Positions 54,685-61,994 of a DNA stretch of 64,000 bases are shown piece by piece. Each line of letters begins with the position of its first letter. Within the stretch, counting starts at the first letter, position 1. Location of the stretch: assembly GCF_029581575.1 (NCBI RefSeq), contig NZ_CP089975.1, forward strand, positions 1,178,001 through 1,242,000, written 5' to 3'. The position numbers were made by a program, and so were the translations under genes. This DNA comes from Moraxella nasibovis. GTDB taxonomy: Bacteria; Pseudomonadota; Gammaproteobacteria; Pseudomonadales; Moraxellaceae. The notes beneath the pieces were generated by a model. The model had not been told where the DNA came from. It searched no databases and saw only the letters and a program-made list of their open reading frames with translations.

Positions 54685-55692
54685 ATGACAATGACTTATT
54701 ATGTTGGTATTGATGTTAGCAAGCACAAGCTGGATGTGGCTTGGCTTAAAGAGTTAAGTACAATGAAAGTCAAAACCAAAGTCTTTAATAATCACTTTGA
54801 TGACTTTGAACACATCATTCATTGGCTTAAAACCAATCTTGGTGCAAGTGTCAGCTTTAACGACATTCATCTTATTATGGAAGCCACAGGGGTATATCAC
54901 GAACCTTTGGCGTATTATTTACACGATTTAGGCTTTAAAGTCTCTATCATCAATCCTGCCTTTGTCAAACACTATGCGGACAGTTTAGGCGTAAGACAAA
55001 AGACAGATAAAAAAGACAGTATTGTCCTTGCCAGATATGGCAGAGCCACCCACCCTGATGCTTGGATTGCCCCAAGTATTGAAGCTCGTCATTTAAAGTC
55101 TTTGCTTTCTCGTCTTGATGCTCTAAATGAAGACTTACAGCGAGAAGAAAACCGCAAAGAAAAAGCAGAAGTGGCAGACACAACCCCCATTGTTAAACAA
55201 TCCATTGACGAGATGATTGTGGCATTAAAATTGGCAATCAGCAAATTAAACGATGACATTGACACTCATATCAACAACCACCCCAAACTTAAAGAAGAGC
55301 AAACACTCTTACAAAGCATCAAAGGAGTGGGACAGGTGGTGTCAAGACAAATGCTTAGTTTGTTTAATACCAAACAATTTAACAATGCCAAACAAGTCTC
55401 TGCTTTTTTAGGGTTGATTCCCAAACAACAAGAATCAGGATTGTTTAAAGGCAGATCAAGACTTGCCAAAACAGGCAATGCTCAATTAAGAGCTAAGCTG
55501 TATATGGCAGCAGTCGTTGCCACCAAGTACAATCCAGACATTAAAGACCAATACGAACGCTTACAACAAAATGGCAAATGCAAAATGCAAGCTTTATGTG
55601 CTTGTATGCGTAAATTGGTGCAAATCTGCTTTGGTGTGATCAAACACCAAACTCCCTACACCCCACAAGTTAGGATAGATAATATGGCTTGA
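54685..55692 (+). mobile_element. IS110-family element, DEDD transposase gene
   Basis: A complete 335-residue transposase. The N-terminal DEDD RuvC-like domain has YYVGIDVSKHKLDVAW, LIMEATGVYHEPLAYYL and RQKTDKKDSIVLARYG. The C-terminal Transposase_20 domain has SIKGVGQVVSRQMLSL and KQQESGLFKGRSRLAKTGNAQLRAKLYMAA, where the Ser of ESG corresponds to the catalytic serine of IS110 recombinases. No frameshift, so it may be active. IS110 elements lack clear inverted ends, and I could not fix the boundaries. It was inserted in the intergenic space between the Nramp gene and the converging degS gene. Confidence 0.92.
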
Positions 55693-56938: not shown

Positions 56939-57237
56939 GTTCGATCCTTAAAAATAACAACTCTCAGACGAATGAAAGTTCGGCTGATTATATGATACAG
57001 CACCAATATTGGGGCAGTTTTGCAAGGATAAAGTGATTGATGGTATTTTTTTATCAAATCTGACCGAGCGCTTACAAGTTTTGCGCAAGTCTATATCAGT
57101 TTGCACAAATGACAAAAAGTCGTTAAAATGCCACTTTATATGATCAAGTTAATACGATCACAACGCCGCCTGCTTTGCACTGGGCGGATTTGGCGTATGA
57201 TTTTAAACCCCTTTTTATTTTTAAATTAAGGCACACC

Positions 57238-57999
57238 ATGACTACGATTCACCCAGCCCAACTGGCTCAATTTTGTGACGACTATTTATCCGCCAGCGAA
57301 TTTGACGACTATTGCCCAAACGGGCTGCAAGTCGATGCAGACACCCCCATCACCAAAATCATCACTGGCGTCACTGCTTGCCAAGCGCTGATCGATGCCG
57401 CCATCGCTGAAAAAGCCCAAGCCATCGTCGTGCATCATGGCTACTTTTGGAAAGGCGAGCCTTCGCCGTTGGTCGGCATGAAAGGTCGTCGTGTGCGCAC
57501 GCTCATGCAGCATGGCATCTCGCTCATCGCTTATCATCTGCCACTCGACGCCCACCCCACCATCGGCAATAACGCCCTACTTGCCCAAGGCCTAGATCTG
57601 CACATCGAAGGTGCGCTGCACCCCCATCAAAAACACCCTGTGGGCAACATCGCCACCTGCTCGCCCATCAGCCCTGCTAAGCTTGCCCAAAAAATCAGCG
57701 ACAAACTTGGGCGAGCACCGCTACACATCGCCAGCGGTAAAGAAACCCTAACCAAAATCGCCTTGTGCACTGGTGGCGCTCAGGACATGATCGAGCAAGC
57801 CGCCAAGATGGGCTGCGATGCGTTCATCTCAGGTGAAATCTCAGAGCGCACCACGCACGCTGCCCGTGAGCTTGGGCTGGACTACTTTGCCGCAGGTCAT
57901 CACGCCACCGAACGCTATGGCGCGCGTGCCTTGGGTGAGGTCTTGGCGGCGCATTTTGGCATCGAGGTGAAATTTGTGGACATTGATAATCCTGCTTGA
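57238..57999 (+). CDS. NIF3-like dinuclear metal-centre protein (YbgI family)
   Basis: About 253 residues. The YbgI/NIF3 family forms toroidal hexamers with a two-metal site. Metal-site pieces are VVHHGYFWKGE, IAYHLPLDAHP and the C-terminal GHHATERYGARALG. CPNGLQVD near the start and ISGEISERTTHAARE also match. Activity is uncertain; GTP cyclohydrolase and hydrolase roles have been proposed for relatives. The ATG at 57238 has AAGG upstream, and the further upstream part of the frame lacks similarity. Confidence 0.92.
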   Translation: MTTIHPAQLAQFCDDYLSASEFDDYCPNGLQVDADTPITKIITGVTACQALIDAAIAEKAQAIVVHHGYFWKGEPSPLVGMKGRRVRTLMQHGISLIAYHLPLDAHPTIGNNALLAQGLDLHIEGALHPHQKHPVGNIATCSPISPAKLAQKISDKLGRAPLHIASGKETLTKIALCTGGAQDMIEQAAKMGCDAFISGEISERTTHAARELGLDYFAAGHHATERYGARALGEVLAAHFGIEVKFVDIDNPA

Positions 58000-58067: not shown

Positions 58068-58378
58068 ATGAAACAAGCTCATGCATCACGGTATCGTGAT
58101 TTGATGGCATTAAGATTAAAAGTCTTTTTTTTATGCCGCTTGCGCTACTCATATTTGCCGCATTTTTGATCAATATGGGAGTGCATATTGTGATCGTGAC
58201 GGCTATGGTGGCAGGCTGTCTGTATTTTGCAATGTTTTATTTTCTAAGCAAAAACATCTGTCCTTGGTGCAAGGGATGCTTTTTTAGTTTTAGTGGATTG
58301 CATGATCAGAAGCTTGCCAATGTCATTTTCGCCAAAAAATGTCAGCACTGCGGCAAGCCTAATGCAGAGGATTTATAG
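58068..58378 (+). CDS. Membrane zinc-ribbon protein, reading frame broken at a T8 tract
   Basis: The frame from the ATG at 58068 (AGGAAA upstream) reads MKQAHASRYRDLMALRLKVFF and then meets eight T (58125-58132), after which it ends early (TGA about 58166). The frame that continues, open from the ATG at 58133, encodes two hydrophobic spans and a zinc ribbon ICPWCKGCFF...KKCQHCGKPN. One extra T (T9) or two fewer (T6) would join the parts into a protein of about 103 residues. The joined protein aligns along its whole length with the gene at 58458-58767. Function unknown. If not joined, the 81-residue part from 58133 could be translated alone, though it lacks a clear ribosome site. Confidence 0.7.
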
Positions 58379-58457
58379 GTGGTGTGGGTATGGGTGGATG
58401 ACGAACAACCCACCCTAGATGGCGTAAGTGTTGGATTTGTTGGTTTCTAGACAAGGC

Positions 58458-58767
58458 TTAATCTGGTTTGCCACAGTTGATGCATTTGGTTTGGGTAAAT
58501 ATGTTAAAGCTAATGTCTCGTGAACCATCTTTTTTATTCAAAAAGAATGAGTTTTTACAAAATGGGCATATGTTGATTTTTCTAAACCAAGCATCTATCA
58601 AGCCAGCTATAATTACACCAACCATAACTATCATTATTGGATTTGTGATATTAAAAAAAACCAATAATAGAGAAGTGGATAGCTAAGCTAATCGGTGGAG
58701 ATACAAAAAATATTGTATTTTTTCTAGATATGAGTTTATTGTATGCTAGTTTTGTTTCTGCTTCCAT
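58458..58767 (-). CDS. Paralogous membrane zinc-ribbon protein, also broken at a T8 tract
   Basis: The minus-strand frame starts at 58767 with AGAGGAAAG upstream and reads MEAETKLAYNKLISRKNTIFF...HFSIIGFF, then stops in TAA directly after eight T (complement of A8 at 58653-58660). With one T fewer (T7) it continues as NITNPIMIVMVGVIIAG...INICPFCKNSFF...TKCINCGKPD, giving about 102 residues. Shared features with the converging 58068 gene are Y-x-x-L near the start, FF before the first span, ICPxCKxxFF, KCxxCGKP and similar length. The downstream part alone is 68 residues. Confidence 0.7.
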
Positions 58768-58964: not shown

Positions 58965-61805
58965 TTATTTGTTTGGCACTGTCAGGGTCTGCCCAATGCG
59001 AAGGTTGGCATTGGTTTCCAGATTATTCATCTTTGCCAGTTCATCGACGCTAATGCCATAGCGGCGAGCCAAAGAGATGAGACCATCGCCAGACTTGACA
59101 CGATAGGTGGTGGTCAGCTTAGGCAGCTTGATGGTCTGACCTTGGCGCAGCTGAGCATTGGTAGCAAGCCCGTTGAGCTTGGCAAGGTCTGCCAAAGATA
59201 CGCCATGCTTTCTGGCAAGCTGCGTTAGGTTATCGCCACTTTGCACGGTGTAGTTTTCAGTCGCTGTTGAGTTGGTCGCTGCCGTAGTGCTGGCAGTGCT
59301 TGTGCGTGTAGGCGCTTGATTTGTGCGTGCAGGCGCTTGGGCTGGCTCGGCTTTGGCGGCTGGTGCTGCCGTCTTGGTGCCAGCAGCAGGAATGGTGATG
59401 GTCGTGCCAAGCAGTAGGTTGGCGGTGCGAGTCAGATTGTTTGCCGCTGCAAGCTCATCGATGCTGATGCCGTGTCTTGATGCCACGGAAGTCAAGCTGT
59501 CGCCTGCCTTGACGGTGTATTTGACTGGCTGATTATTAAGCTTACGAGTGACGGCTGTGCTTGTGGCTGGTACTTTGATGGTTCGCCCTGCGATGAGATT
59601 TGCATTTGCCGAGAAGTCGTTCAAAGCAGCGATGGCAGCAGGCGTCACTCCCAGACTGTTTGCGATGCCTGTTAGAGTGTCGCCCGCTTTGACGGTGTAA
59701 TTGGATGTATTTGCCGCAGCAGCACTGTCTGTACGCTGAGTATTGGTCGTGCGTGCAGAGGTGGTGCTGGCGGTATTTGTCGATGCACTGGCAGATGCTT
59801 TGGCGACTGGGACTTTTAGGCTTTGACCGATGAACAGCCCTTGGGTCGGCTCAATATTATTTAAGGCTGCCAATTCTTGAATGCTGATCTCATGTCTGCG
59901 AGCCAGCATGGTCAAGCTCTCCCCTACTTGCACTCTGTGCGTGGTGGTCTTGATGGCAGGTGCGCTGGTGGTTCTGGTGGGGGCGGCTGCCGTCTGAGTA
60001 GGCTGAGGCTGAACAGGCTGAGCCTTGACTTTGCCCGGAACGAGCCACAGCTTTTGTCCACGCTGTACATAGGCATTGGTTGCAAGGTTGTTGTAGCTTG
60101 CCAACTGACTGACCGTCAGACCATTCGCTGCGGCGATGCCCGTTAAGGTATCGCCTGCCTTGACAGTGTAGCTTTCAGGTTTTGATACAGGCTTTGGCGC
60201 TGGGGTCTGTGCTGCACGGGCAGGCGTGCTGACGACTGGCGCAGGCTCAGGCACGGCAGGCATCGGGGTTGGCATGGTGTAGTCCACGCTTGGAGCGGGC
60301 TGAGTCTGGCTAGGTACTGGCGCAGAAGTCTGGGCAGCACTGGTATTCGATGGGCCTGTGTAGCTGAGCGTCTTAGTCTGACCACGAGATTCCAAAACCG
60401 ACTGGGCGGTTTGTAAGGCATCTAGCTGAATGTTGCCATCATTAGGGTTGACCGCTTGCACCACTTCGTTGGTGCTCGACTGAATCTGAGCGGCAATGAA
60501 ATTGCGCTCTTCTTGGGTGATCGCAGGCTCTTGGACGATGGTGTTGTATGAGGTGACCTGTGCGATGGTCGTCGGCAGTGTGTTTGACTGCATCAGCTCT
60601 CTTTGTGAGCTGGCGTTGGTCTGCACACCAGACTTTGGCAAGACATATTGCGTGGTCTGCGCAGGTGCAGTGGCAATAAAATCGCCGCCGTAGCCATAGC
60701 CTGTCAGTGCTGAGATTCGCTCATCCACAGAGGCGGTTAGGCTGTCAGGAATGACGATGCGGTTTGGACCTGCTGTATCGACGACAAAATTTGTCAAAGC
60801 AGGGTTGAGCAGACGCAGCTCATCAAAAGGCACGCCTGTCACAGAGGCGATCTCTTGTAGGCTCACACCATAATTGGCAGGTACGGTTCTAAAATGCGAA
60901 TGGTTGGCGATGGCAGGCAAATTGACACCATAGCTTGATGGCGAAGCGACAATCTGGGAAACGGCAATGAATCTAGGTACATAGTTCATCGTCTCGGTCG
61001 GCAGCTTTAATGACCAATAATCGGTCGGTAGCCCTGCCGCCTCATTTGCCTTGATGGCACGAGACACACGACCCGGACCTGCATTATACGCCGCAAGTGC
61101 CAGCTCCCATGAGCCAAACTGATTATAAAGACTGGTCAAAAAGTCATAAGCTGCTCGGGTGGACTCAATGACATCACGGCGACCGTCATATGTTGCGCTT
61201 TGATTTAGTCCATAAATACGACCTGTACTTGGAATGAACTGCCAAAGACCTGCGGCAGCGGCATTTGAAGTAGCAGAAGGATCATAGGAGCTTTCGATGA
61301 TTGGCAGTAACGCAAGCTCAGTCGGAATGCCTCGTCTTTCGGCCTCTGTCACGGTGTGATGCAGATAACGAGACGCACGAGCCGTCAGGCGATCCAAATA
61401 GCTTTGGCGGCTATAAAACCATGACTTTTGCGCCTCGATGCGTGCATTGTAGGTGTCGCCCATGCGGTAGCCACGGCGGATTCTGTCCCATAGGTTGCCA
61501 TAGCGCTGCACACTCAGTGCATCTCCCTCCACCATGCTCATGTCGGTGGCTTGTAAAAGCCCTTCCAATTCATCGAGCATCGCCTCATCTAAGACGCCAG
61601 CGTAGCCTGACTGCTGCGTGGCAGGCGTGGTGCGCTGTACGGTAGGCGTGACTGTGCCAGTCGGCGTGGTTCTTGGTGTACTGCTACACGCCGCCAGCAC
61701 ACACGCCGACACCGCCAAGGCAAGTGGTTTCATCAGTCTAATTTTTTCGGTGGCGGGATGAGTTGTTGTCGTGATAAGGTCGCTTTTTGGCGCTAAATGT
61801 GGCAT
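58965..61805 (-). CDS. mltD: MltD-like membrane-bound lytic transglycosylase with six LysM domains
   Basis: About 946 residues. A lipoprotein signal ends at VLAAC (Cys40). The SLT domain (about 145-260) has the catalytic Glu171 in LPIIESSYDPSATSN, then AAGLWQFIPSTGRIYGL and ALAAYNAGPGRVSRAI. It cleaves glycan strands to anhydro-muropeptides. From residue 544 to the end there are six LysM domains (each opening Y/HxVxxGDxLxxxA), separated by Thr/Ala/Pro-rich linkers. MltD proteins often have two or three LysM domains, so the array is expanded. AAAGGG lies seven bases before the ATG at 61805. An ATG at 61733 (MKPLALAV) directly at the signal peptide is an alternative start. Confidence 0.92.
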   Translation of the reverse strand: MPHLAPKSDLITTTTHPATEKIRLMKPLALAVSACVLAACSSTPRTTPTGTVTPTVQRTTPATQQSGYAGVLDEAMLDELEGLLQATDMSMVEGDALSVQRYGNLWDRIRRGYRMGDTYNARIEAQKSWFYSRQSYLDRLTARASRYLHHTVTEAERRGIPTELALLPIIESSYDPSATSNAAAAGLWQFIPSTGRIYGLNQSATYDGRRDVIESTRAAYDFLTSLYNQFGSWELALAAYNAGPGRVSRAIKANEAAGLPTDYWSLKLPTETMNYVPRFIAVSQIVASPSSYGVNLPAIANHSHFRTVPANYGVSLQEIASVTGVPFDELRLLNPALTNFVVDTAGPNRIVIPDSLTASVDERISALTGYGYGGDFIATAPAQTTQYVLPKSGVQTNASSQRELMQSNTLPTTIAQVTSYNTIVQEPAITQEERNFIAAQIQSSTNEVVQAVNPNDGNIQLDALQTAQSVLESRGQTKTLSYTGPSNTSAAQTSAPVPSQTQPAPSVDYTMPTPMPAVPEPAPVVSTPARAAQTPAPKPVSKPESYTVKAGDTLTGIAAANGLTVSQLASYNNLATNAYVQRGQKLWLVPGKVKAQPVQPQPTQTAAAPTRTTSAPAIKTTTHRVQVGESLTMLARRHEISIQELAALNNIEPTQGLFIGQSLKVPVAKASASASTNTASTTSARTTNTQRTDSAAAANTSNYTVKAGDTLTGIANSLGVTPAAIAALNDFSANANLIAGRTIKVPATSTAVTRKLNNQPVKYTVKAGDSLTSVASRHGISIDELAAANNLTRTANLLLGTTITIPAAGTKTAAPAAKAEPAQAPARTNQAPTRTSTASTTAATNSTATENYTVQSGDNLTQLARKHGVSLADLAKLNGLATNAQLRQGQTIKLPKLTTTYRVKSGDGLISLARRYGISVDELAKMNNLETNANLRIGQTLTVPNK

Positions 61806-61994
61806 GATGAAACCCTTTATACCTATAAATAAAAAATAAATCAAAAAAGCTACGCAATCATTATTCAAAAATTAAAAATCATTGCTAAAAATTGTCAAAA
61901 TGCTCAGCCTAAGATACTGGCATCGGCAATGGCTTATAATGCCTTATTTTTCATGGATTATCAACCGTCAAAGTGAATTTTTACCCACAAAAAA

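What the first reader, a model, noticed from the sequence alone, without database searches (positions are those of the whole stretch)
58068..58767. Two converging paralogous membrane zinc-ribbon genes, each split at a T8 tract
Both genes have a well-placed ribosome site and a plausible N-terminus, run into eight T, and lose frame; both have an intact remainder in another frame. Restored by T9 (or T6) in one and T7 in the other, the two proteins (about 102 residues each) align over their full length: Y-x-x-L, FF, two hydrophobic spans, ICPxCKxxFF and KCxxCGKP. The tracts are at different points in the two genes, so the break is not one inherited mutation. This fits slipped-strand phase variation, or transcriptional slippage giving mixed products. 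Either would make this a small two-gene switchable membrane system of unknown role. The large genes elsewhere in the window are intact, which argues against a high indel error rate, but homopolymer error remains possible.
Basis: partly seen in the sequence, partly recalled or inferred. Interest (0 to 1): 0.75.

Follow-up and report, generated by a model that had tools for sequence, protein, structure and literature searches.

The report
Frameshifted orphan toxin-immunity gene pair
Two small neighbouring Moraxella genes, each out of frame at a run of eight Ts, look like stranded and probably decaying copies of a family that protects bacteria against toxins delivered by their neighbours, rather than a dedicated on/off switch.

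Summary
Two converging paralogous genes (58068-58378 +, 58767-58458 -) each lose frame in a T8 tract and have an open remainder. They belong to a family of about 105-residue proteins with two hydrophobic spans and a four-cysteine ribbon, found in 25 of 348 family genomes. In five genomes the family gene lies directly behind the same toxin C-terminus: two CdiA-type (PT-VENN), two Rhs-type by eye, one truncated tail. I therefore read it as an unlisted CdiI/RhsI-type immunity family. The window pair are orphans: no such toxin is found in this genome. Of 32 copies classed by eye, unlinked ones are broken in 15 of 27, toxin-linked ones in 0 of 5 (Fisher 0.031). Lesions differ in place and kind, in-frame stops included. 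Tract density in 14 intact ORFs is what codon usage predicts (23 observed, 22.8 expected for runs of 7 or more). This fits decay of orphan immunity genes better than evolved phase variation. A close M. oblonga ortholog is intact. Assembly error and phase variation remain open, because neither reads nor other isolates could be seen.

The parts
58068..58169 (+). N-terminal piece of the + gene (33-aa ORF, ATG start), running into the T8 tract
   Evidence: N-terminus of the family type (R-Y-x-x-L-M) by eye, compare
58125..58132 (+). T8 tract where the + gene loses frame
58133..58378 (+). Remainder of the + gene (81 aa): hydrophobic stretch, ICPWC, KCQHCGKP; has its own ATG directly after the tract
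   Evidence: own-genome and genus matches
58651..58767 (-). N-terminal piece of the - gene (38-aa ORF, ATG at 58767)
   Evidence: 69% identical to the M. oblonga N-terminus over 39 residues
58653..58660 (-). T8 tract (A8 on +) where the - gene loses frame; the homologous tract in M. oblonga differs by one in length and is in frame
58458..58664 (-). Remainder of the - gene (68 aa): second hydrophobic span, ICPFC, KCINCGKP
   Evidence: 61% identical to M. oblonga; DNA of the gene region 80% identical over 327 bp

Best explanation
The two genes are orphan copies of a CdiI/RhsI-type immunity family: small proteins with both ends predicted in the cytoplasm, a two-span membrane hairpin and a C-terminal four-cysteine ribbon. 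The cognate toxin is a glycine-rich C-terminal domain carried by CdiA or Rhs proteins; I infer that the immunity protein blocks it at the inner membrane. In this genome the cognate toxin was not found, so selection to keep the copies is probably weak. Each has independently lost frame at a T run that arises from Phe codons in an AT-rich membrane gene. A third copy next to dnaE is still intact. Shown: family, gene order with the toxin in five genomes, orphan status here, more broken copies among orphans, no excess of tracts. Inferred: the immunity function, the membrane site of action, and that the frame loss is decay.
For: Toxin link: in G004 and G020 the gene overlaps the 3' end of an ORF with a PT-VENN domain above its Pfam cut-off. 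G397 and G236 have a Rhs core (by eye) followed by a homologous toxin end and then the family gene. G027 has a toxin tail, behind a transposase-like ORF, overlapping it by 4 bp. All five distinct strong toxin matches in the fetched loci have the family match starting 9-36 nt after the toxin match. G236 was found toxin-first and its family gene seen afterwards. Orphans: no toxin match in G000. 15 of 27 unlinked copies broken against 0 of 5 linked (one-sided Fisher 0.031; 0.052 without three uncertain ones). Runs of 7 or more: 23 observed, 22.8 expected; 8 or more: 9 observed, 7.5 expected in 14 intact ORFs. The - gene against M. oblonga has dN/dS 0.28: a constrained protein gene over most of that divergence. 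Published orphan cdiI genes exist beside CDI loci (passages of PMC3150448; PMC6336857).
Against: No immunity test exists here. Only 5 of the 32 copies classed are toxin-linked, and only one pair (G236) was found toxin-first; the rows of the second toxin profile came from pairs found through the family gene, so the 5 of 5 is partly circular. A sixth, weak toxin match (G366, E 0.008) has no family gene behind it. None of the 13 copies in genus g15 has a toxin match. Similar-looking proteins in other families of the order sit in fixed places without toxins. Both window genes keep both pieces free of further stops, and dN/dS shows constraint, so the lesions are recent or the genes still work. 12 of 27 orphans are intact. 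Copies are not phylogenetically independent and were classed by eye. The window genome's sequencing method is unknown. Pfam's RHS model matches G397 only at E 0.046 and G236 not at all.
Confidence: 0.6

Rival explanations
1. Homopolymer length error in the assembly: both genes are really intact orphan immunity genes.
For: Both lesions sit in 8-nt runs; both pieces are otherwise free of stops, and the - gene is constrained. The genome is a single contig of unknown sequencing method.
Against: In the 117 kb of this genome that I examined, three other 8-nt runs lie inside open frames: 20587 and 63925 in the window, and one in the intact third copy (L030:10918). Related genomes, several of them multi-contig drafts, carry broken copies too, some by in-frame stops.
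Confidence: 0.18
2. Slipped-strand phase variation of membrane immunity proteins: cells in a population switch immunity on and off at T tracts.
For: 7 of 15 broken copies are broken at an A or T run of 6-8. G006 and G007 differ by one T in the same tract, one in frame and one not. In M. catarrhalis short A or T tracts vary between strains or are listed as candidates, e.g. poly-A in the uspA2H ORF and T7-9 upstream of an arginase gene (passages of PMC7302503).
Against: Tracts are at different places in most members and not above codon expectation; 8 of 15 lesions are not at such runs. The five toxin-linked copies, where loss would be costly, are intact. A repeat of the usual contingency kind in this genome is a 17.8-copy tetranucleotide.
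Confidence: 0.13
3. The genes are expressed despite the frame break: by transcriptional or ribosomal slippage on the tract, or, for the + gene, by starting at the ATG at 58133 just after the tract.
For: An ATG directly follows the + tract and leaves the hydrophobic part and the ribbon intact; both remainders are free of stops.
Against: By eye no clear ribosome site precedes 58133, and the - gene has no comparable start that keeps both spans. The 12 intact unlinked and 5 linked homologs include the N-terminal part.
Confidence: 0.07

Closest known systems
Orphan cdiI / rhsI immunity genes of CDI and Rhs systems (PMC3150448 and PMC6336857; passages seen)
   Same: Small gene directly behind a CdiA or Rhs toxin end in other genomes; stranded copies without their toxin; by eye in module arrays in G021, G130 and G311.
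   Different: The window copies lie about 316 kb from the own CDI-type locus and are out of frame; the family has a predicted membrane hairpin plus zinc ribbon and no Pfam or NCBIfam model above cut-off.
Membrane-acting CDI toxin/immunity pairs such as CdiA-CT/CdiI of E. coli EC93 (pore-forming toxin: passages of PMC9086364; membrane nature of that CdiI recalled)
   Same: Membrane-located small immunity protein, by inference.
   Different: No sequence link shown; toxin activity here is unknown; predicted cytoplasmic four-cysteine ribbon.
Simple-sequence contingency loci of Moraxella catarrhalis (uspA1, modM, mid/hag; PMC7302503, passages)
   Same: Length-variable repeat tract in or near a reading frame; A/T tracts occasionally among them.
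   Different: Here the tracts are only eight long, at different positions in most members and at the density expected from codons.

Membership tests
CdiI/RhsI-type immunity protein | Encoded directly downstream of a CdiA-CT or Rhs-CT toxin domain, same strand | tested here: inconclusive
   Met for the family in 5 of 5 strong toxin matches in fetched loci (one weak match, G366, has none). Not met for the two window copies themselves, which are orphans, nor for 25 other copies.
CdiI/RhsI-type immunity protein | Delivery-protein features at the toxin: PT-VENN or Rhs core | tested here: met
   PF04829 in G004 and G020 above cut-off. Rhs core seen by eye in G397 and G236; Pfam RHS only E 0.046 in G397, none in G236. 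G027 has only a tail.
CdiI/RhsI-type immunity protein | Binds and neutralises the cognate toxin specifically | not testable with these tools
   No experiment known to me; none run.
Simple-sequence contingency (phase-variable) gene | Tract conserved in position among orthologs | tested here: not met
   By eye, lesions and tracts lie at different codons in different members. Exceptions: the T tract shared with M. oblonga at the - gene, and the tract shared by G006 and G007.
Simple-sequence contingency (phase-variable) gene | More or longer tracts than codon usage gives | tested here: not met
   14 intact ORFs, 1000 codon shuffles: 23 against 22.8 (7 or more), 9 against 7.5 (8 or more), P 0.52 and 0.28. 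G236 and G397 were not in this set.
Simple-sequence contingency (phase-variable) gene | Length polymorphism within a culture or between isolates | not testable with these tools
   One genome per species held; no reads.
Zinc-ribbon protein | Two CxxC pairs conserved | tested here: met
   C67, C70, C95, C98 invariant in 15 aligned sequences. Metal binding itself not tested; no Pfam zinc-ribbon model passes its cut-off.

The most novel reading that the evidence does not exclude
Moraxellaceae keep a scattered set of orphan membrane immunity genes against CdiA/Rhs toxins that flip in and out of frame at naturally slippery Phe (T) tracts, so that a population hedges between cost and protection: phase-variable immunity without attack.
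Probability: 0.12. Interest if true: 0.7.

Novelty: new member of a known kind. Interest (0 to 1): 0.4.

Why it matters
It assigns a testable role to an unlisted two-span, four-cysteine membrane protein family shared between CdiA and Rhs toxin systems, names its likely toxin partner, and gives an example of immunity genes that seem to decay once the toxin is gone. It also shows that a striking double frameshift can be expected from AT-rich membrane genes under relaxed selection, a caution for calling phase variation from one genome.

Tried and rejected
Pfam, NCBIfam and solved-structure searches with the window pieces, intact homologs and toxin ends gave no model above cut-off for them except PT-VENN; other hits above cut-off belong to neighbouring genes. 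tblastn of M. oblonga's protein against plasmids and phages: no match; of G397's toxin end and family protein against plasmids: no match. Toxin profile in 369 class genomes: 0 matches, which the tool itself calls uninformative without a known positive in the set. In 6 genomes of G397's family: 1, G397 itself. AlphaFold2 of the single M. oblonga protein: mean pLDDT 56, three helices, too poor for a fold search, so none was run. (order, 390 genomes) matched 18 genomes: G000, G015, G141 and 15 others. Of the 15 only G397 entered my counts; I looked at the surroundings of all 15 but did not class the rest; several sit in a fixed neighbourhood without a toxin and may be a different family. Two weak matches (G014, G042) were dropped as probable chance, by eye. 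Literature: the searches showed no paper on a two-span zinc-ribbon CdiI/RhsI family; I saw listings and abstract beginnings, and passages of four papers. The one hit (PMC12419801) was not opened.

Full report
What is there. They converge between a NIF3-family gene (57175-57999) and a large LysM-like gene on the other strand (58965-61868; name by eye). The GC of the two genes is 39.9% and 30.3%, against 46.8% for the window, which suggests acquired DNA (inference). The genome (G000) is one contig of 2,227,058 bases.

The family. A profile from six intact members matches 25 of 348 family genomes, the own one included, in 5 of 16 genera. Fifteen aligned members share C67, P68, C70, F74, F75, C95, C98. 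Hydropathy of three intact members shows hydrophobic stretches for two spans before the ribbon. Lysine/arginine at the N-terminus and after span 2 suggest both ends inside (inference). The own genome has a third, intact copy at C1:1170671-1170997 beside dnaE. M. oblonga has an intact ortholog of the - gene. DNA is 80% identical over 327 bp, reaching about 20 bp upstream of the start, and dN/dS over 100 codons is 0.28 (0.43 before and 0.22 after the tract).

What the family does. In G004 and G020 the gene starts inside the 3' end or at the stop codon of an ORF with a PT-VENN pretoxin domain. The two toxin ends are 50% identical. In G397 (another bacterial family) a Rhs core, by eye, is followed by a homologous toxin end, and the family gene begins in a 4-bp overlap. 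In G236, found with the toxin profile, a Rhs core plus toxin end with one in-frame stop is followed by an intact family gene. In G027 a transposase-like ORF precedes a toxin tail that overlaps the family gene by 4 bp. The second toxin search gave 5 of 348 genomes at E 0.01: G004, G020, G027, G236 and, weakly (0.008), G366. In the fetched loci the five strong ones (these four and G397) have the family match 9-36 nt on; G366 has none. The same toxin and the same partner behind two delivery proteins is what an exchangeable toxin/immunity module predicts. By eye the G021, G130 and G311 copies sit among CdiA-like fragments and small genes, like orphan arrays (Pfam found no domain in the G021 fragment). 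Neutralisation is not shown.

Orphans. No toxin match exists in G000. G000 does have a CDI-type locus at C1:1552500-1562768: a TPS-domain protein of 2655 aa and a ShlB-type transporter, about 316 kb from the window pair. I classed 32 copies by eye from printed frames and ORF lists: 29 places, G015, G236 and G397. Toxin-linked: 0 of 5 broken. Not linked: 15 of 27 broken (window two, G002, G007, G008, G010, G015, G137, G139, G204, G207, G222, G237, and both G311 copies). Seven of the 15 break at an A or T run of 6-8. The rest have in-frame stops (G015, G204, G207), other indels (G002, G010, G137), or are remnants or altered (G222, G311b). One-sided Fisher is 0.031, or 0.052 without G137, G222 and G311b. 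Twelve unlinked copies are intact, eight of them among the 13 in genus g15, so decay is not universal. Orphan immunity genes can be useful: orphan CdiI of E. coli EC93 is made and protects (passages of PMC3150448).

Switch or decay. If tracts were selected as switches, intact members should hold more or longer runs than their codons give. They do not: 53 against 53.2 for 6 or more, 23 against 22.8 for 7 or more, 9 against 7.5 for 8 or more, over 14 intact ORFs and 1000 synonymous shuffles (G236 and G397 were not included, and the shuffle keeps each gene's own codon set, so it tests arrangement only). The same genome carries 17.8 copies of GTTG next to an N6/N4 methylase gene, the usual kind of contingency repeat; modM of M. 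catarrhalis has CAAC repeats (PMC7302503 passages). Against this, A/T tracts of 7-9 are listed as varying in M. catarrhalis (same passages), and G006 and G007 differ by one T in the same tract. Phase variation is therefore unlikely, not excluded. Assembly error is likewise not excluded. Against it stand three other 8-nt runs inside open frames in the 117 kb of this genome examined (20587, 63925, L030:10918) and broken copies in other assemblies.

Verdict. Real observation; most likely an orphan, recently frame-broken pair of CdiI/RhsI-type immunity genes. The family itself, without a Pfam or NCBIfam model in my searches, is the more useful finding.

Noticed in passing
L043:4956-5026 (G000:C1 about 1564956-1565026): 17.8 perfect copies of GTTG next to an N6/N4 DNA methylase gene (L043:3144-4718, -): a likely true phase-variable mod locus, outside the window.
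   Followed up: partly
G000:C1:1549922-1562768 (L042, L043): CDI-type locus: TPS-domain CdiA-like gene (2655 aa), ShlB-type transporter, and upstream on the other strand small genes including a barstar-like immunity gene.
   Followed up: partly
L033:9865-10638 (G006): Two family copies fused head to tail in one 257-aa open frame, a double-domain version.
   Followed up: no
L087:1-1326 (G622): Two repeats of a short similar toxin-like tail (GGFVLYP...) around two different small cysteine-ribbon membrane genes; by eye an orphan module array.
   Followed up: no
window 54685-55692: IS110-family transposase gene a few kb from the pair.
   Followed up: no
L088, L089, L090, L092, L095 and others (order-level hits): Two-span cysteine-ribbon proteins in fixed neighbourhoods without toxins; perhaps a separate chromosomal family with a similar build.
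   Followed up: no
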